Shown: one piece after another, positions 2,843 to 9,905 of the stretch
Position numbering within the stretch: position 1 is the stretch's first letter
Layout of the letters: each line of letters opens with the position of its first letter
Assembly: GCF_036226925.1 (NCBI RefSeq)
Contig: NZ_CP109031.1
Coordinates: forward strand, 2,480,001-2,544,000
Length of the DNA: 64,000 nucleotides
DNA from: Streptomyces sp. NBC_00659
GTDB lineage: Bacteria > Actinomycetota > Actinomycetes > Streptomycetales > Streptomycetaceae
Direction of reading: 5' to 3'
Notes under the pieces: generated by a model
Seen by the model: the letters and a program-made list of their open reading frames with translations, nothing else
Databases searched by the model: none
What the model was told of the DNA's origin: nothing
Program-made: the position numbers and the translations under genes

Positions 2843-3886
2843 TCAGGCCGTGACAAGAACCTTCAGCGCGGTCCGTTCGTCCATCGCCTTGTAGCCCTCG
2901 GGCACGCGGTCCAGGCCGACGGTCATGTCGAAGACCGGCGAGGGGTCCACGGTGCCGTCGAGGACGTCGGGCAGCAGCTCGGGGATGTACGCGCGCACCG
3001 GGGCGACCCCGCCGCGCAGGGCGATGTTCCGGTCGAACATGACGCCCAGGTCGAGGCCCGTACCGCTGCCGTGGGGCACTCCGACGAAGCCGATGGCGCC
3101 GCCGTCGCGGGTGATGTTCACCGCCGTGCTCATGGACTGCTCGGTGCCGACCGCCTCGACGACGCACATCGCGCCCTGGCCCCGGGTCAGTTCGCGGACG
3201 GCCGCGACGGCCGCTTCGCCGCGCTCGGCGACGACGTCCGTGGCGCCGAAGCGGCGCGCGATGTCGGTGCGGACCTGGTGACGGCCGAGCGCGATGATCC
3301 GCTCCGCGCCGAGCCGCTTGGCCGCGAGCACGGCGCACAGTCCGACGGCCCCGTCGCCCACGACGGCGACGGTCGAGCCCTTGCGGACACCGGCGCCGAG
3401 GGCCGCGTGGTGACCGGTGCCGAGGACGTCGGAGAGCGTCAGCAGCGCGGTCAGCAGGTGGTCGTCGGAGGCCGCCTCCTTGGGGAGCTGTACGAGGGTG
3501 CCGTCGGCGAAGGGGACGCGCACGGCCTCGCCCTGGCCGCCGTCGTAGCCGACGGAACCCCAGAAGCCGCCGTGCACGCACGAGGTGGTGAGTCCGTCCC
3601 GGCAGTAGTCGCACACGCCGTCGGACCACATGAACGGGGCGACGACCAGGTCGCCGCGCCGGACGCCGGTCACCTCGGAGCCCGTCTCCTCGACGACGCC
3701 GAGGAACTCGTGCCCGATCCGCTGGCCCGGCTGCCGGGCCGCCTCGCCCCGGTACGCCCACAGGTCGCTGCCGCAGATGCAGGAACGCAGCACCCGCACG
3801 ATCGCGTCGGTGGGCAGCTGCACCATGGGCTCCGGCACCTCCTCCACACGCATGTCGTACGGGGCGTGGATGGTGGTGGCGCGCAT
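2843..3886 (-). CDS. Zinc-dependent alcohol dehydrogenase, MDR superfamily
   Basis: A 347-aa medium-chain dehydrogenase expected to oxidise an alcohol (or reduce an aldehyde) with NAD(P). The catalytic-zinc motif is C38-GSD in SCICGSD and H59-E60 in IGHEFLG; Cys 92, 95 and 103 form most of the structural-zinc lobe (CDYCRDGLTTSC). The nucleotide-binding GDGAVGLCAVLAA lies near residue 175. The length is normal and ATG 3886 gives the canonical MRATTIHAP start. It stands alone, tail-to-tail with the CoA-transferase and just before the lysoplasmalogenase-like gene on the same strand (stop 3928). The substrate is not predictable from sequence. Confidence 0.9.
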   Translation of the reverse strand: MRATTIHAPYDMRVEEVPEPMVQLPTDAIVRVLRSCICGSDLWAYRGEAARQPGQRIGHEFLGVVEETGSEVTGVRRGDLVVAPFMWSDGVCDYCRDGLTTSCVHGGFWGSVGYDGGQGEAVRVPFADGTLVQLPKEAASDDHLLTALLTLSDVLGTGHHAALGAGVRKGSTVAVVGDGAVGLCAVLAAKRLGAERIIALGRHQVRTDIARRFGATDVVAERGEAAVAAVRELTRGQGAMCVVEAVGTEQSMSTAVNITRDGGAIGFVGVPHGSGTGLDLGVMFDRNIALRGGVAPVRAYIPELLPDVLDGTVDPSPVFDMTVGLDRVPEGYKAMDERTALKVLVTA

Positions 3887-3927: not shown

Positions 3928-4599
3928 TCAGGGGGTGGTTGAGCGCATCTCACCGTACGCCGCCCCGCGCGCGGGACGCGCGGCGAGGGGGCCCAGCACG
4001 CCTCGGACCAGCAGGAACTGGGCCGCGATGTACGTGAGCATGATCCAGAAGGCCACCTTCGGAAGCTGCGGCCAGTCGGCGACTCCGGTGGCGATCAGGG
4101 TGTCCGAGAGCATGAAGAGAGCGCCGCCGAGCGCCGCGGGCGGCCCGAGGCGCGTGGCCCCGTACGCCATCGCGGTCAGCAGCAGGCTGTACCCGGCGAC
4201 GGGGACGCGCAGGCCGGCCGGCAGACCGGGCCACAGCAGCACGACGAGGGCGACGAGAGCGGTGACGTACGCGCCGACGAGCCGTGCGTCCCGCACGCGT
4301 GGCGTCCGGGAGAAGAGCACGAGGTAGCACACGTGCCCGGCCGCGAAGGAGGCCATGCCGGCCAGGAAGGCGGGGTCGGCGTCGGAGAGCAGGGCCAGGT
4401 CGCCGCACCAGCCGAGGAGCAGGGCCGCGAGGAGCAGCCGGGGCGCGCCGCGCACACCGGCGTACGCGGCGAGCAGCGGCATCAGGAGCGCCTTGGCGAT
4501 CCGGTGCCCGGGGTCGGCACCGGCGAGCAGCGAGGCGAGGTCGACGGCCGCCGCCAGCGCGAAGCAGACGAGCAGGACGCGTGGGGTACGGGGGCTCAC
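3928..4599 (-). CDS. YhhN/TMEM86-family lysoplasmalogenase-like membrane protein
   Basis: A 223-aa integral membrane protein of the YhhN family, whose studied animal members (TMEM86A/B) cleave the vinyl-ether bond of lysoplasmalogens. Seen: seven or eight hydrophobic helices and the family's conserved acidic motifs GDLALLSD (near residue 70) and FMLSDTLIA (near 165). The GTG start at 4599 overlaps the stop of the upstream hydroxylase by GTGA, so it is translationally coupled to it. The upstream partner belongs to the alkylglycerol monooxygenase-like group, so both genes fit ether-lipid breakdown. Family assignment is good; the substrate in this bacterium is inferred. Confidence 0.82.
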   Translation of the reverse strand: MSPRTPRVLLVCFALAAAVDLASLLAGADPGHRIAKALLMPLLAAYAGVRGAPRLLLAALLLGWCGDLALLSDADPAFLAGMASFAAGHVCYLVLFSRTPRVRDARLVGAYVTALVALVVLLWPGLPAGLRVPVAGYSLLLTAMAYGATRLGPPAALGGALFMLSDTLIATGVADWPQLPKVAFWIMLTYIAAQFLLVRGVLGPLAARPARGAAYGEMRSTTP

Positions 4600-5486
4600 G
4601 CGACGGGTTCCGTAGCCGGGGCCTGGGCCGGGGCGGTGGCCTGGGCGGTGGCCGTCGGCGCGGGCTGCCAGCCGGGGCCGCCGAGGAGCCGTCCGGCGCG
4701 CTCGCGCCAGTTCGCCGCCGCCCGCACGTCGCGGGCGATGGCGGTGTACTCGTGGGTGGCCACGCGCAGCGGGTTGTACGTGGAGATGTTCTTGGTGAGC
4801 CCGTAGACGGGCCGTTCGGTCTCCGCGACGAACGATCCGAAGAGCCGGTCCCAGACGATGAGGATGCCGCCGAAGTTGCGGTCCAGGTAGCCGCCCTGGG
4901 AGGCGTGGTGGACGCGGTGGTGGGAGGGCGTGTTGAGGGCGAACTCGAACCAGCGGGGCATCTTGTCGATGCGCTCGGTGTGGATCCAGAACTGGTACAC
5001 GAGACTCACCGACGAGCAGAACGCGAGCGCGGCCGGGTGCACCCCGAGGGCGATCATCGGGAGGTAGAAGGGCCACGACGTCCAGCCCGTCCAGGGCTGG
5101 CGCAACGCGGTGGTGAGGTTGAACTTCCTGCTGGAGTGGTGCACGACGTGGCAGGCCCACAGGAGGCGGATCACGTGGTGGCCGCGGTGGGACCAGTAGT
5201 AGAAGAAGTCCTGCGCGAGCAGCATCAGCGGGATCGTCCACCACAGGACGGGCACCCGCAGCGGCGTCAGTGCGTAGACCGCGCTGTAGACGGCGACGAT
5301 CGGGAACTTCCACAGGAAGTCGAAGAGGAGGCTGCCGAGTCCCATGCCGAGGCTCGTCGCGGCGTCCTTCGTCCCGTACCCCGCGGCGTCCTCGTCCGGA
5401 TGGATCCGGACGCTGATCATCTCGATCACGGCGAGGAGGACGAAGGCGGGGATCGACAACAGCACGACATCGGGCAGATTCGGCAT
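4596..5486 (-). CDS. Sterol desaturase/fatty acid hydroxylase family, alkylglycerol monooxygenase-like
   Basis: A 296-aa membrane di-iron hydroxylase. The histidine clusters are H100-RG-HH, H113-VV-HH and SHHRVHH near residue 197. The stretches HHSSRKFNLTTALRQ, YQFWIHTERI and NTPSHHRVHH closely resemble what I remember of animal alkylglycerol monooxygenase (AGMO/TMEM195), which cleaves ether lipids; the ending FGGILIVWDRLFG also fits. Other family members act on sterols or fatty acids, so the substrate remains open. The C-terminal tail (from about residue 270) is Ala/Pro/Thr-rich and probably disordered. The next gene, a lysoplasmalogenase-like protein, overlaps it by 4 bases. Confidence 0.85.
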   Translation of the reverse strand: MPNLPDVVLLSIPAFVLLAVIEMISVRIHPDEDAAGYGTKDAATSLGMGLGSLLFDFLWKFPIVAVYSAVYALTPLRVPVLWWTIPLMLLAQDFFYYWSHRGHHVIRLLWACHVVHHSSRKFNLTTALRQPWTGWTSWPFYLPMIALGVHPAALAFCSSVSLVYQFWIHTERIDKMPRWFEFALNTPSHHRVHHASQGGYLDRNFGGILIVWDRLFGSFVAETERPVYGLTKNISTYNPLRVATHEYTAIARDVRAAANWRERAGRLLGGPGWQPAPTATAQATAPAQAPATEPVA

Positions 5487-5593: not shown

Positions 5594-6934
5594 TCACCAC
5601 ACGCGCACCGAGCCTCCTCTCGCGAACACCGGGCTCGTCGCGTCGGAGGGCGGGGTGTCCAGCGGTTCGGCGATCTCGGCCACCGTGGGACCGGCCTTGG
5701 CGGCGATCTCGTCGAGGTACGCCAGGTCGAACCCGTAGACGCGGGCCGCGTTGCCGCCGACCATGGCGGCGATCTCGGCGCGCGGCAGGCCCGCGTAGGC
5801 GATGCGCAGGCCCTCGCGGGTGTAGGGATGGGTGCCTTCGTCGTGCGGGTAGTCGCTGCCCCACATGATCTTGTCGAGGCCGATGCGGTCGCGCAGCGGC
5901 ACCTCGTGGGGGCGCATGAAACTGGCGCCGACGAAGCAGTTCTCGCGCCAGACCTCGGAGGGGCGCTCGCCCATCGTCGCGGCCAGCCCCGCGCCGAACT
6001 TCGACTCGGCCGTCGACGCCCTGCCCGCCGCCGCGACGAGCCGCCCGTGGTAGTAGTCCAGCATGTCGAGCACCCCGGGGATCCAGCCCGATCCCTGCTC
6101 GGTCAGCACCAGTCTCAGGCCGGGGTGCCGGCGGAACGCGCCGCCGAACACCAGGTGCCACAGCGCCCGGTGCGAGAACCAGGTCGTCTCCACCATGAAG
6201 ACCGCGCGGGCCGCCGGTTCGTCCCCGAGCGGCGGCGAGGCGGAGCCCGCGTGGTGGTTCACCGGTACACCCAGCTCGGCGCAGGCGGCCCAGATCGGGT
6301 CGTACGCCCCCGAGTACAGCTCCGGCAGACCCGAACCCGGGGGCGTACCGGGCAGCAGCAGCCCGCCCCTCAGGCCCGCGTCCGCCGAGCGGTGGATCTC
6401 CTCGACCGCCGCGTCGACGTCGTTCAGGAGGATCTGGAAGACGCCCGCGCGCCGGCCGGGCGCCGCCGCGCAGAAGTCGGCGAGCCAGCGGTTGTGGGCC
6501 CGCAGCCCCGCCCAGCGCCGCTCGAACTCCGTCGCCGTCGGGGCCGGTGCCATGAGGGAGGCCGACGGGAAGAACGGCGGGATGGTGTTCGGGAAGACCA
6601 CCTCCGCGACGATGCCGTCCTCCTCCAGCTCCGCGAGGCGCCGCCCGGAGTTCCAGTTCCGGTCGGCGGTGTCGGCGAGCAGGTCCTCGTACGGGTTGAC
6701 GTAGTCGGCCGCCCAGGCGTCGAAGTCGTCGTGGTACCGGCGCTCCAGGTACGGCTTGTAGTCGAGGAGATCGGCGCCCGCGTGGCAGTCGGCGGAGATG
6801 ACGGTGTAGCGCTCCTCGGCACCGGCACGGTCTCCGGCGCCCGCACGGCCCCCGGCGCTCGCGCGCTCCACGGCGGCCAGTCGGTCTCCGGCGGTCGTTC
6901 GCTCCCCGGCGGTCACGGGCTCCCAGGCGCTCAC
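5594..6934 (-). CDS. Amidohydrolase (ACMSD-like, amidohydrolase_2) with repeat-built N-terminus
   Basis: A 446-aa TIM-barrel metal hydrolase or decarboxylase of the amidohydrolase_2 type. The first metal-binding strand is degenerate, VISADCHAG near residue 45; later barrel motifs include NHHAGS and GSDYPHDEGTHPY. Start GTG 6934 overlaps the stop of the upstream paralogue (GTGA). The first 42 residues are an extension with Arg at 12, 18, 24, 30, 36 and 42, a six-residue repeat not seen in the paralogue, whose barrel begins at once. It is the last gene of a four-gene operon and is clearly related to its neighbour. Substrate unknown. Confidence 0.85.
   Translation of the reverse strand: MSAWEPVTAGERTTAGDRLAAVERASAGGRAGAGDRAGAEERYTVISADCHAGADLLDYKPYLERRYHDDFDAWAADYVNPYEDLLADTADRNWNSGRRLAELEEDGIVAEVVFPNTIPPFFPSASLMAPAPTATEFERRWAGLRAHNRWLADFCAAAPGRRAGVFQILLNDVDAAVEEIHRSADAGLRGGLLLPGTPPGSGLPELYSGAYDPIWAACAELGVPVNHHAGSASPPLGDEPAARAVFMVETTWFSHRALWHLVFGGAFRRHPGLRLVLTEQGSGWIPGVLDMLDYYHGRLVAAAGRASTAESKFGAGLAATMGERPSEVWRENCFVGASFMRPHEVPLRDRIGLDKIMWGSDYPHDEGTHPYTREGLRIAYAGLPRAEIAAMVGGNAARVYGFDLAYLDEIAAKAGPTVAEIAEPLDTPPSDATSPVFARGGSVRVW
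6809..6916 (-). repeat. 18-bp coding tandem repeat, six units
   Basis: Six degenerate 18-bp units within the 5' end of the amidohydrolase gene, encoding hexapeptides such as TAGERT, TAGDRL, AAVERA, SAGGRA and GAGDRA, all in register by their Arg residue. Confidence 0.7.
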
Positions 6935-8214
6935 GGGCTCACTCCCAGTACGGGGAAGTCGTGGTCCGTCAGCCAGTGGCGGCCCACCTCGCGCGAGCGC
7001 GCCCAGGACGCCTCGACCGCCGGCTGGTCCTCCCCCTGGCCCAGTTCGGCCGGGGTCGGACCGATCCGCCGGGCGATCGGGGCCAGTTCGGCGACGTCGA
7101 AGCCGAACACCTCGGCCGCCGAGAGGCCGAGCATGCGGCGGGTCTCCGCCACCGGGATGTCGTGGAAGGTCCTGGCCAGCCAGGCCCGGGTGTCGGGCCA
7201 GGTGCCCTCGGGGTGCGGGAAGTCACTGCCCCACAGGATGTTGTCGACGCCGATCTCGTAGCGCTGGGCGAGTTCGCGGCGCTTGGTGTTGGTCGCGCAG
7301 ACGAAGACCTGCCGGTCCAGGTACGCGTGCGGGGGCCGCTTCAGCTCGGCGAAGGGCGACAGCTTCTTGCCGCCGTGCGCGCCCAGGTACAGCCGGTCCA
7401 TGAACCACAGCAGGTTGGGCAGCCACCAGCAGCCCGACTCGGCGACACCGAACCGGAGTCCGGGGTGCCGCTCGAAGGCTCCCGACCAGAGCAGGAACCA
7501 CAGGGGGCGCGCGGGCCACCAGGTGACTTCGGAGACGTAGATCCCCAGGTGGTCGCCGTACTCGTGGCGCGGCGCCGCGCCGGAGTGGGTGAGCACGGGC
7601 ATCGCGCACTCGGCGGCCGCCGCCCACACGGGGTCGTAACGGCGGTCATGGTAGGGCTCCTTGTCGACCCACATGGAGGGGATCATCAGGGCGCCGAGGC
7701 CCGACTCCTTGGCGCGGTACACCTCGGCGACGACTCTGCCCGTCTCCCCTGTGACCGGCAGCAGGGCGACCCCGCAGTGCCGTTCGGGGTGTTCGGAGAC
7801 GAAGTCGGCGAGCCAGCGGTTGTGGGCCTGCGCGCCCGCCATGCCGAGTTCCGGGTCCTGGTCGCCGGAGAGGCCGAGGCCCACGCCGAAGGGGGCCGCG
7901 GTGCGGCTGTCCACGGCGTCCGCGTCGGGGAAGACGACCTCGGCCGCCACCCCATCACCGTCCAGTTCCTTCAGGCGCTGGGCGGTGTCCCAACCGCCGC
8001 GCAGGCCTTCCTCGTTGTCCTGGAACCACTTGTCGGCGAACGCCTCGTTGCGGATGCCGAGACGGTTCATCTCCTCGCGGCGCCGGCCCTGGCCCGCGAG
8101 GAACTCGTCGAAGTCCCGGTGGAACCGGGAGTCCAGATAGGGCCGGTACTCCTCGGTGGGAAGTCCGGCGTGGCAGTCGGAGGAGATGATCAGATACGGG
8201 TCCTGTTCGGTCAC
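6931..8214 (-). CDS. Amidohydrolase (ACMSD-like, amidohydrolase_2)
   Basis: A 427-aa amidohydrolase_2 protein, paralogous to the next gene downstream. Visible: ISSDCHAGLPTEEYRPYLD at the N-terminus (the partner has VISADCHAG), LTHSGAAP for the mid-barrel metal His, and GSDFPHPEGTWPD for the C-terminal Asp. Family members hydrolyse or decarboxylate cyclic or aromatic acids using one zinc ion. ATG 8214 lies 9 bases after the SDR stop, so it is part of the minus-strand operon running from 9905 to 5594. Two adjacent paralogues suggest two related substrates or a heteromer; both ideas are inference. Confidence 0.88.
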   Translation of the reverse strand: MTEQDPYLIISSDCHAGLPTEEYRPYLDSRFHRDFDEFLAGQGRRREEMNRLGIRNEAFADKWFQDNEEGLRGGWDTAQRLKELDGDGVAAEVVFPDADAVDSRTAAPFGVGLGLSGDQDPELGMAGAQAHNRWLADFVSEHPERHCGVALLPVTGETGRVVAEVYRAKESGLGALMIPSMWVDKEPYHDRRYDPVWAAAAECAMPVLTHSGAAPRHEYGDHLGIYVSEVTWWPARPLWFLLWSGAFERHPGLRFGVAESGCWWLPNLLWFMDRLYLGAHGGKKLSPFAELKRPPHAYLDRQVFVCATNTKRRELAQRYEIGVDNILWGSDFPHPEGTWPDTRAWLARTFHDIPVAETRRMLGLSAAEVFGFDVAELAPIARRIGPTPAELGQGEDQPAVEASWARSREVGRHWLTDHDFPVLGVSP

Positions 8215-8223
8215 CGCGCCCCC

Positions 8224-9108
8224 TCAGTCGAGGATGAAACTTTCCAGGTACGACGGATTCGCCCGCTCGAGCATCGACCGCGACCGCGCCCGGATCTGCC
8301 GGTCGCTGTGCTCGCTCTCGGGCAGCAGCCAGAAGCGGCTCTCGCGGATCCCCTCGGCGACAAGGTCGGCGACCTCCTCGACAGGGGTGAACCGCACCTC
8401 GTGGCCCGCCTCGTTCATCGCGGCCTCCCACTGGCCGAGGCTGCGGTAAGGGGTCCTGCGGGGCCGCTCCTTCGCGTACCGCGCGGGCCGGTTGCGGTGC
8501 GACTCCCACAGGCCCGTGCGGAGCATGTGCGGTCCGGGGAACAGCACGGAGGCGCCCACGCGCGCGTGCTCCGCCTTCAGATGCGCGTACAGCGACTCGG
8601 TCATCGTCACCACGGCCGCCTTGGTGACGGCGTACACGGAGGCGGTGGGCAGCGGGGCGATGCCGCCGTCACCGGACGAGGTGTTGACGACGTGGCCGGG
8701 CTCGCCCCCGGCGAGCATCCGGGGCACGAACGCCTGGATGCCGTGGAAGACGCCCCACACGTTGACGGCGAAGGCCCACTTCCAGTCGTTCGGGTCGTGC
8801 TCCCACATCCGGCCCTCGGCGCCGGAGCCGACACCGGCGTTGTTGCACAGGACGTGCACAGCCCCGTAGGTGCCGTACACGTCCTCGGCGAGCGCGACGA
8901 CTTCCGAGCGCTCGCCCACGTCCACCACGCGCGCGTGGACGTCGGCGCCGTCCTCGCGCAGCTCCCCGGCGGCCTTCTCCAGCGCGCCCTCCTCGACGTC
9001 GGCGAGGACCACCCTCAGTCCGTCCGCCGCGAACCGCCGTGCCATGGCGAGCCCGATGCCACTCGCCGCGCCGGTGACCACGGCGACCTGCCCCGCGCGC
9101 AGTTCCAT
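8224..9108 (-). CDS. Short-chain dehydrogenase/reductase
   Basis: A 294-aa classical SDR expected to interconvert an alcohol and a ketone with NAD(P). The cofactor motif TGAASGIG is at residues 12-19, D37 suggests NAD preference, NNAG is at 89-92, the catalytic Ser is at 144/145 and YAVTK gives Y159 and K163. The C-terminal 50 residues are longer than in the shortest SDRs and may cap the active site. ATG 9108 overlaps the upstream decarboxylase stop as TGATG, so translation is coupled. In context it probably acts on the same catabolic chain as the decarboxylase and amidohydrolases. Confidence 0.9.
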   Translation of the reverse strand: MELRAGQVAVVTGAASGIGLAMARRFAADGLRVVLADVEEGALEKAAGELREDGADVHARVVDVGERSEVVALAEDVYGTYGAVHVLCNNAGVGSGAEGRMWEHDPNDWKWAFAVNVWGVFHGIQAFVPRMLAGGEPGHVVNTSSGDGGIAPLPTASVYAVTKAAVVTMTESLYAHLKAEHARVGASVLFPGPHMLRTGLWESHRNRPARYAKERPRRTPYRSLGQWEAAMNEAGHEVRFTPVEEVADLVAEGIRESRFWLLPESEHSDRQIRARSRSMLERANPSYLESFILD

Positions 9109-9905
9109 CAGACGCTTCCCTCGGGCGGCCCGTCGAGGATCTGCCGCGGATCGTCGTAGCGCTGGTGGATGTACGGCAACAGGGCCTGCGCGCTGACGCG
9201 TTCGGCAACCCTGCCCCTCTGGTCGGTGGTCTTCTCGCCGATGGTGATCTCCAGCAGCCTGCGTACGGGCAGATCGGCTACCGGGTCGTACATCGACTCG
9301 CGCAGGACGACGTCCCCGGTGACGCGCTCCAGCCTGCGGACCTTCTCGTTGCGCACGCAGTGCACGAGGACCGGGTCGGCGTCGAAGCCCGAACCATCCA
9401 CCGCGGGAAGGAACTTGAAGTAGAAGTCGGTCTTCTGGGAGGGCTCGGGCAGCGGCAGGGTCCCGCTGACCGCGCCGCGCACCTCGACGAAGGCGATGCC
9501 GTGCCGGGCGAGCACCCCGCGCACGACGAGACCGTCGCGCTCTACGGTCACCTCGCCGAGCTTCTTGGGCTCCCCGAAGACCTCACGGCCGCCGGTCAGG
9601 GCCCGCTCGTGGGTCATCGGCATGACGAGCGGATACCAGCCCTCGACGTCGTCGTGCGCGGCCGCCACGGCGAACGAGCCCGCGCCCAGCGGATATCCGG
9701 GCAGATCGACCTTGCTGACGCTGACCCGCACCAGGGGCCTCGTTGTGGGCTTCAGCGGCGGGGGCAGGACCGCCGCGACCGCGTCCGGGTCGCTCTCCCA
9801 GACGGCCACCACACCGGTGGACCAGATGTCGGGGAGCTTGGAGCTCGCGGCGCGCGAGGCGGCGATCTCCGCCTCGGTCCGCGCGCCGTACCTGACTCGA
9901 GCCAT
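9108..9905 (-). CDS. Acetoacetate decarboxylase family protein
   Basis: A 265-aa member of the acetoacetate decarboxylase (ADC) fold, which removes CO2 from beta-keto acids through a Schiff base on lysine. The expected lysine pair is K114/K115 in EVFGEPKKLGEV; the upstream MPMTHERALTGGRE matches the family core. ATG 9905 gives MARVRYGART, the natural start; the much longer open frame upstream crosses the divergent gene and is not used. It is the first gene of the ADC-SDR-amidohydrolase-amidohydrolase operon. Several ADC-like proteins do other chemistry, so the exact reaction is uncertain. Confidence 0.87.
   Translation of the reverse strand: MARVRYGARTEAEIAASRAASSKLPDIWSTGVVAVWESDPDAVAAVLPPPLKPTTRPLVRVSVSKVDLPGYPLGAGSFAVAAAHDDVEGWYPLVMPMTHERALTGGREVFGEPKKLGEVTVERDGLVVRGVLARHGIAFVEVRGAVSGTLPLPEPSQKTDFYFKFLPAVDGSGFDADPVLVHCVRNEKVRRLERVTGDVVLRESMYDPVADLPVRRLLEITIGEKTTDQRGRVAERVSAQALLPYIHQRYDDPRQILDGPPEGSV

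What the first reader, a model, noticed from the sequence alone, without database searches (positions are those of the whole stretch)
3928..5486. Coupled AGMO-like hydroxylase and lysoplasmalogenase: possible bacterial ether-lipid breakdown pair
Seen: a di-iron hydroxylase with HHSSRKFNLTTALRQ, YQFWIHTERI and NTPSHHRVHH overlaps by GTGA a YhhN/TMEM86 protein with GDLALL and FMLSDTLIA. Known: animal AGMO cleaves alkyl ether lipids and TMEM86 cleaves lysoplasmalogens. Two enzyme families of ether-lipid catabolism fused into one translation unit suggests a functional pair, not described to my knowledge in streptomycetes.
Basis: partly seen in the sequence, partly recalled or inferred. Interest (0 to 1): 0.7.

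Follow-up and report, generated by a model that had tools for sequence, protein, structure and literature searches.

The report
Possible ether-lipid-cleaving enzyme pair
In this Streptomyces genome two membrane enzymes resembling the animal enzymes that break ether lipids, AGMO and TMEM86, are translated as one coupled unit that relatives often keep or lose together, which suggests an untested bacterial way of breaking down such lipids.

Summary
In detail: a di-iron hydroxylase (4596-5486, minus) overlaps a YhhN-family gene (3928-4599, minus) by GTGA. The 4-nt overlap is kept in 68 of 69 related loci. In 246 Streptomyces genomes both genes occur in 146 and neither in 77. In 16 of 16 pair-less loci read, flanking genes remain but both pair genes are gone. 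Single-gene states exist too (7 and 16 genomes). Outside the genus, 0 of 31 genomes with both families have them within 10 kb.

The YhhN protein has all eight residues tested in human TMEM86A/B and eight predicted helices, so lysoplasmalogenase is a good guess. The hydroxylase belongs to an AGMO-like clade: 14 of 15 residues reported essential in human AGMO are present (Y236 is F). It lacks AGMO's pterin-binding glutamate (E137 is V) and C-terminal domain, so I do not file it as AGMO. Deep-branching actinobacterial relatives do carry that glutamate.

Best explanation: a two-enzyme membrane unit that cleaves alkyl- and vinyl-ether lysolipids, probably scavenged, to fatty aldehydes, the hydroxylase using an electron donor other than tetrahydrobiopterin. 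Substrates are inferred. A bacterial AGMO-like enzyme acting on prodigiosin is a serious warning.

The parts
4596..5486 (-). AGMO-like membrane di-iron hydroxylase (sterol-desaturase family, PF04116), 296 aa; nine conserved histidines H100, H104, H113, H116, H117, H169, H190, H193, H194 plus Q130, D202, N204, W212, D213; V105 where AGMO has its pterin glutamate
3928..4599 (-). YhhN/TMEM86-family protein (PF07947), putative lysoplasmalogenase, 223 aa, GTG start, eight predicted helices; K36, G66, D67, H89, G158, S165, D166, Y190
4596..4599 (-). GTGA: stop of the hydroxylase overlapping the start of YhhN (translational coupling)
   Evidence: conserved in 68 of 69 loci
2843..3886 (-). Zn-dependent alcohol dehydrogenase 41 nt downstream of YhhN; possible but unproved aldehyde-handling partner (in 32 of 80 loci; also kept in 8 of 16 loci that lack the pair)
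5594..9905 (-). Upstream genes on the same strand: two amidohydrolases, SDR, acetoacetate decarboxylase-like protein; a separate, variable catabolic operon (each gene in 24 to 33 of 80 loci), not part of the core unit

Best explanation
The two genes form one functional membrane unit for cleaving ether-linked lysolipids. The AGMO-like di-iron hydroxylase oxidises the carbon next to the ether oxygen of alkyl lysolipids or alkylglycerols; the hemiacetal falls apart to a fatty aldehyde and a glycerol compound. The YhhN protein hydrolyses the vinyl-ether bond of lysoplasmalogens, giving the same kind of aldehyde. Because these aerobes have no known plasmalogen pathway, the substrates are probably scavenged from animals, protists or anaerobes in soil, or are toxic lysolipids to be cleared. 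The hydroxylase lacks the AGMO pterin glutamate, so electrons probably come from a redox protein rather than tetrahydrobiopterin. Shown here: the genes, coupling, joint absence at the locus, residue conservation and clade. Inferred: both substrates, the electron donor, the origin of the lipids and the common purpose.
For: Start-stop overlap in 68 of 69 loci. Genus sample of 246 genomes: both 146, orthologous hydroxylase only 7, YhhN only 16, neither 77 (17 of these 77 have a more distant hydroxylase) (not corrected for descent). 16 of 16 pair-less loci read keep the flanking exonuclease and S8 protease but lack both genes; on a tree of those flanks the 'neither' state needs 10 changes, at least 7 forced by well-supported branches. 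A second, divergent Streptomyces hydroxylase lineage (53-56% identical) also has a YhhN gene abutting in 2 of 9 loci and a remnant in a third. All eight TMEM86-tested residues are present in the window and in 68 of 69 loci, the other locus unresolved at one site (PMC11994398 passages); eight helices, pLDDT 90.1. The YhhN protein of M. tuberculosis is a measured lysoplasmalogenase in an organism without plasmalogens (PMC9052158 abstract and passages). The hydroxylase keeps 14 of 15 residues essential in human AGMO, including Q162, where the 12 nearest hydroxylases outside the clade have H (PMC3617469 and PMC7911779 passages). A Streptomyces phospholipase A1 turns plasmalogens into lysoplasmalogens (PMC5095149 passage).
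Against: E137 is replaced by V (none of 159 close relatives has E) and the AGMO C-terminal domain is absent. No plasmalogen synthesis genes found (PlsA-type 0 of 15 genomes; CarF-type none in this genome, control silent). Each gene survives alone in some genomes: in L184-L189 the hydroxylase has lost the stretch with its first histidines while YhhN stays, and YhhN is missing behind the hydroxylase in 7 loci. Outside the genus the two families are not neighbours (0 of 31). Flanking genes are also syntenic (S8 protease in 70 of 80 loci), so kept order is weak evidence by itself, and two adjacent genes can go in one deletion. The divergent YhhN copies lack the conserved histidine. The alcohol dehydrogenase persists in 8 of 16 pair-less loci. 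A bacterial AGMO-like enzyme is titled as a prodigiosin cyclase (title only).
Confidence: 0.4

Rival explanations
1. The hydroxylase oxidises something other than an ether lipid (an acyl or amino lipid, a terpenoid, or a secondary metabolite), as other AGMO-like or sterol-desaturase-family enzymes do, and YhhN clears lysolipids; the two share membrane remodelling or stress, not one pathway.
For: A bacterial AGMO-like enzyme is reported to cyclise prodigiosin (De Rond 2017, title seen in reference lists only). The pterin glutamate and C-terminal domain of AGMO are missing. Similarity to the ornithine-lipid hydroxylase model OlsE: 36.4 bits for the window protein, and 45 of 46 family members match it, the best at E 1.7e-44. 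No endogenous ether-lipid pathway found.
Against: The AGMO residue set is nearly complete and the partner is a family whose studied members cleave a neighbouring class of ether lysolipids. The window protein's OlsE score is far below the cut-off of 475.
Confidence: 0.32
2. The genes are neighbours by descent only; short operons with 4-nt overlaps are common in Streptomyces and persist without a shared pathway.
For: The whole region is syntenic (DEDD exonuclease in 53, S8 protease in 70 of 80 loci). Another pair (AH2/AH1) keeps a -4 overlap in 26 of 31 loci. Single-gene states in 7 and 16 genomes. No adjacency outside the genus in the phylum sample.
Against: Both genes are absent together while the flanks stay, in several separate lineages, and a divergent hydroxylase lineage carries its own YhhN. 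Loss of two adjacent genes by one deletion could still explain part of this.
Confidence: 0.18
3. The hydroxylase desaturates or dehydrates an alkyl ether to a vinyl ether (a plasmalogen-like product) and YhhN turns that product over: a synthesis-and-breakdown pair.
For: The Pfam family of the hydroxylase also holds desaturases (established knowledge, no call), the attacked carbon would be the same, and YhhN needs a vinyl ether made somewhere; no known vinyl-ether synthase was found.
Against: No vinyl-ether lipid of Streptomyces is mentioned in the passages seen; the closest studied animal relative hydroxylates.
Confidence: 0.06

Closest known systems
Animal alkylglycerol monooxygenase (AGMO, TMEM195, EC 1.14.16.5)
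   Same: Fatty-acid-hydroxylase family with nine essential histidines at matching spacing; Q162, D233, N235, W243 and D244 equivalents present (against residues in PMC3617469 and PMC7911779)
   Different: E137, needed for tetrahydrobiopterin binding, is V105; Y236 is F205; 296 aa against 445 aa, no AGMP_C domain; substrate unknown
YhhN/TMEM86 lysoplasmalogenases (human TMEM86A/B, M. tuberculosis Rv1401, L. pneumophila Lpg1991)
   Same: PF07947 over cut-off, all eight mutagenised residues, eight predicted helices, 7TM-receptor/rhodopsin-like arrangement
   Different: Coupled to a hydroxylase gene; activity not measured
Bacterial AGMO-like prodigiosin cyclase (De Rond 2017)
   Same: AGMO-like oxidase by its title (reference lists)
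   Different: Sequence not seen; works on a pigment, not a lipid; a YhhN neighbour is not known to me
E-type actinobacterial AGMO-like hydroxylases (named sources include Egicoccus and Ilumatobacter)
   Same: Same clade; those compared are 40-53% identical to the window protein
   Different: 119 of 120 keep the pterin glutamate and one has D; no YhhN gene in the loci read, about 3 kb either side
Ornithine-lipid hydroxylase OlsE
   Same: Same Pfam superfamily, weak model match
   Different: 36.4 bits against a curated cut-off of 475

Membership tests
AGMO (alkylglycerol monooxygenase) | Nine histidines essential in human AGMO (132, 136, 145, 148, 149, 201, 221, 224, 225) | tested here: met
   H100, 104, 113, 116, 117, 169, 190, 193, 194, constant offset 32 up to H201 and 31 after it; mapped by published numbers, not by an alignment with an animal sequence
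AGMO (alkylglycerol monooxygenase) | Six further essential residues Q162, D233, N235, Y236, W243, D244 | tested here: inconclusive
   Five of six present; Y236 is F205, a mild change, in the window and in 68 of 72 Streptomyces orthologs
AGMO (alkylglycerol monooxygenase) | Glutamate E137 next to the second histidine, for tetrahydrobiopterin | tested here: not met
   V105; no E in any of 159 close relatives or 72 locus orthologs
AGMO (alkylglycerol monooxygenase) | C-terminal domain (AGMP_C, PF24858; transmembrane segments 6-9 of the human protein) | tested here: not met
   No match in P0001 or in any of the 46 proteins of A1 nor in the genome (control silent); the protein ends at 296 aa
AGMO (alkylglycerol monooxygenase) | Cleavage of alkyl ether bonds with tetrahydrobiopterin | not testable with these tools
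   Needs enzyme assay
YhhN/TMEM86 family | PF07947 above curated cut-off | tested here: met
   122.2 bits, cut-off 25.6
YhhN/TMEM86 family | Eight residues tested in TMEM86A/B (K43, G81, D82, H104, G182, S189, D190, Y213 in TMEM86A) | tested here: met
   K36, G66, D67, H89, G158, S165, D166, Y190; 68 of 69 loci complete, the other unresolved at one site; mapped by spacing and motif
YhhN/TMEM86 family | Eight transmembrane helices | tested here: met
Lysoplasmalogenase (EC 3.3.2.2) | Hydrolysis of lysoplasmalogen | not testable with these tools
   Needs enzyme assay
OlsE ornithine-lipid hydroxylase | NCBIfam NF052566 cut-off 475 bits | tested here: not met
   36.4 bits
Plasmalogen producer (PlsA route) | PlsA-type domain DUF2229 (PF09989; its link to PlsA is recalled) | tested here: not met
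   0 of 15 Streptomyces genomes incl. this one; 4 of 14 control genomes rang
Plasmalogen producer (CarF/PEDS1 route) | Lipid_desat PF10520 | tested here: inconclusive
   No match in this genome, but no control genome rang either

The most novel reading that the evidence does not exclude
Streptomyces carry an undescribed ether-lipid-cleaving operon: a pterin-independent AGMO-type monooxygenase for alkyl lysolipids, coupled to a lysoplasmalogenase for vinyl lysolipids, so that both kinds of ether lysolipid are opened by one membrane unit. Its hydroxylase belongs to a bacterial AGMO-like clade whose deep-branching actinobacterial members still have the animal-type pterin glutamate and may be true pterin-dependent AGMOs.
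Probability: 0.33. Interest if true: 0.75.

Novelty: new variant of a known kind. Interest (0 to 1): 0.5.

Why it matters
If true, it would be, to my knowledge, the first genetic system for ether-lysolipid breakdown in aerobic bacteria that have no known ether lipids of their own, and the question could be settled in easy laboratory organisms. It would also give a natural AGMO-like enzyme without the pterin site, and bacterial relatives with it, to study how AGMO takes electrons; animal AGMO has resisted purification (PMC3617469 and PMC7911779 passages). Even if the substrates differ, the coupling and joint absence define a two-gene unit that can be deleted and assayed.

Tried and rejected

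Selection of rows: I called 153 of 179 hydroxylase-positive genomes orthologous (E below about 1e-140) and set 26 weaker ones aside; nine of those 26 have YhhN and are among the 16 'YhhN only'. Of 150 listed hydroxylase rows 139 had a listed YhhN row and 134 were adjacent; three of the 5 others look like contig breaks. In some searches, four fetched loci gave no hydroxylase by my profile (L141, L146, L149, L150), 15 distant hydroxylases and three over 450 aa were left out of the tree, and Streptomyces orthologs were thinned to every eighth. In one search, only loci with both flanking proteins long enough were used (58). The 18 pair-less genomes came from the no-match rows shown, not from a random draw; five shown rows were dropped (G441 and G468 have YhhN; G396, G444 and G471 are incomplete); 17 of the 18 had a strong exonuclease match and 16 were fetched (G439 lay at a contig edge, G424 had no strong match). 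The YhhN-only genomes G529 and G586 were not looked at.

Full report
What is there. On the minus strand of this Streptomyces window a 296-aa hydroxylase (4596-5486) ends in TGA, and that stop shares GTGA with the GTG start of a 223-aa YhhN-family protein (3928-4599). Pfam places them in FA_hydroxylase (98.8 bits) and YhhN (122.2 bits), both far above the curated cut-offs. Each is the only member of its family found in the 9.66-Mb genome.

Neighbourhood. Upstream on the same strand lie two amidohydrolases, an SDR and an acetoacetate-decarboxylase-like protein; downstream, 41 nt after YhhN, a Zn-alcohol dehydrogenase. In the 80 related loci from named genomes (the best 80 of 582, so biased to close kin) the counts are: YhhN 69, S8 protease 70, DEDD exonuclease 53, SURF1 42, amidohydrolases 33 and 32, alcohol dehydrogenase 32, CoA-transferase 29, SDR 26, ADC 24 (floors, because loci end about 6 kb from the hydroxylase). 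So the hydroxylase-YhhN unit sits in a conserved chromosomal frame, while the catabolic genes around it come and go. YhhN is found in 69 of the 76 loci with more than 100 nt beyond the hydroxylase.

Coupling. In 68 of the 69 loci a start codon lies exactly at the 4-nt overlap, although the hydroxylase tail differs in length; in 15 of the 69 a later start fits the aligned YhhN end better, so the true start is not proved there. As a control the AH2/AH1 pair of the same loci keeps a -4 overlap in 26 of 31, ADC/SDR in 1 of 23, SDR/AH2 in 0 of 26 and YhhN/ADH in 0 of 32, the last with gaps of 15-87 nt. The overlap is strongly kept, but is not unique.

Presence and absence. In a sample of 246 genomes of the genus the orthologous hydroxylase is in 153 and YhhN in 162; both in 146, hydroxylase only 7, YhhN only 16, neither 77, of which 17 have a more distant hydroxylase (odds ratio 100, not corrected for descent). 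Of 139 genomes with both rows listed, 134 have YhhN within 1 kb downstream on the same strand; three of the five others look like contig breaks. I then read 16 loci from genomes that lack both: all 16 keep the exonuclease and the S8 protease, and none shows either gene, though 8 still have the alcohol dehydrogenase. On a tree of the two flanking proteins from 58 loci the 'neither' state needs 10 changes, at least 7 forced by supported branches. Against a strict pair: single-gene states exist. In the YhhN-only genomes G484, G573, G581, G623, G566 and G526 only pieces of the hydroxylase are left beside an apparently whole YhhN at the usual locus, and in all six the stretch with the first histidines (H100 to H117) is missing; G441, G494, G570 and G468 hold YhhN alone there, and in G407 a rearrangement has parted the two.

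Beyond the main lineage. A divergent Streptomyces hydroxylase group (L152-L160, 53-56% identical) has a GntR/FCD regulator gene directly upstream in 9 of 9 loci (similarity; Pfam for L155 and L157), a YhhN gene directly downstream in 2 of 9 (L155, L157) and a 31-codon YhhN remnant in L159. These two YhhN copies have Q where the family has the conserved H. In the phylum sample of 396 genomes, 31 genomes outside the genus have both families and 0 of 31 have them within 10 kb; 22 of these have them on different contigs.

Hydroxylase residues. Reviews list nine histidines and Q162, D233, N235, Y236, W243, D244 as essential in human AGMO and E137 as needed for tetrahydrobiopterin (PMC3617469 and PMC7911779, passages and a figure legend). 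By spacing (offset 32 up to H201, 31 after it) the window protein has all nine histidines and Q130, D202, N204, W212, D213; Y236 is F205 and E137 is V105. Among 159 close relatives none has E at this place and 154 have V. In contrast 119 of the 120 listed relatives of a six-protein profile from deep-branching actinobacteria have E and one has D, and 113 match all 16 positions (the profile itself had E, so this is not a fair sample). The mapping rests on spacing to published numbers, not on an alignment with an animal sequence. The 12 nearest hydroxylases outside the clade have H where AGMO has Q162; more remote ones vary, and L133 and L142 have Q; the divergent Streptomyces proteins L161 and L162 have R. 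The tree separates the AGMO-like group from the 12 (97/95 support), with the window and its orthologs as one clade (100/100), the divergent Streptomyces group near the R-type (80/87; most of that group from one other family of the class, handle f3, which I take to be mycobacterial) and the E-type on other branches of an open fork. No AGMO C-terminal domain is found in any of 46 proteins. I therefore call it AGMO-like and do not file it as AGMO.

Substrates. Plasmalogens are said not to occur in aerobic bacteria other than myxobacteria (PMC10191378, passage). The PlsA-type domain is absent from 15 of 15 Streptomyces genomes searched, with working controls, and a CarF-type desaturase is not found in this genome, with silent controls. 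A Streptomyces phospholipase A1 produces lysoplasmalogens from plasmalogens (PMC5095149, passage), so such cells could meet the substrate when feeding on other organisms' lipids. This is why I favour scavenging or detoxification over turnover of own lipids. It is inference.

Verdict. A real, conserved two-gene unit with one partner that is very probably a lysoplasmalogenase-family enzyme and one AGMO-like oxidase of unknown substrate. A joint role in ether-lysolipid cleavage is the best single reading (0.4). The main rival is an oxidase with another substrate (0.32): a bacterial AGMO-like enzyme is titled as a prodigiosin cyclase (De Rond 2017, title only; the paper itself is not held). In the searches made no listed paper is about the pair; most listed papers were not opened.

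Noticed in passing
L092, L093, L099, L101, L112, L120 and P0162-P0281: Deep-branching actinobacterial AGMO-like hydroxylases carry the glutamate next to the second histidine that a review describes as special to AGMO (113 of 120 listed proteins match all 16 positions checked). They may be true bacterial pterin-dependent AGMOs.
   Followed up: partly
L152-L160: Divergent Streptomyces hydroxylases have a GntR/FCD regulator gene directly upstream in 9 of 9 loci, hinting at induction by an acid or lipid.
   Followed up: partly
L002:5148-5876 and 24 further loci: A VIT1-family transporter gene (PF01988, 237.9 bits for the L002 copy) ends less than 400 nt before the hydroxylase in 25 of the 33 loci that have it; it is not in the window. 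It could handle iron for the di-iron enzyme or be a chance neighbour.
   Followed up: partly
L184-L189: Hydroxylase pieces without the H100-H117 stretch lie beside an apparently whole YhhN gene at the usual locus in six genomes: the oxidase core is lost while YhhN is kept.
   Followed up: partly
window 5594-9905: An operon of two amidohydrolases, SDR and acetoacetate-decarboxylase-like protein, with a -4 overlap between the amidohydrolases in 26 of 31 loci; present near the hydroxylase in about a third of the 80 loci.
   Followed up: no
G407 (L190, L193): Hydroxylase (near the amidohydrolase block) and YhhN (with alcohol dehydrogenase and S8 protease) lie about 1.4 Mb apart on one contig, a natural test of whether linkage is needed.
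   Followed up: no
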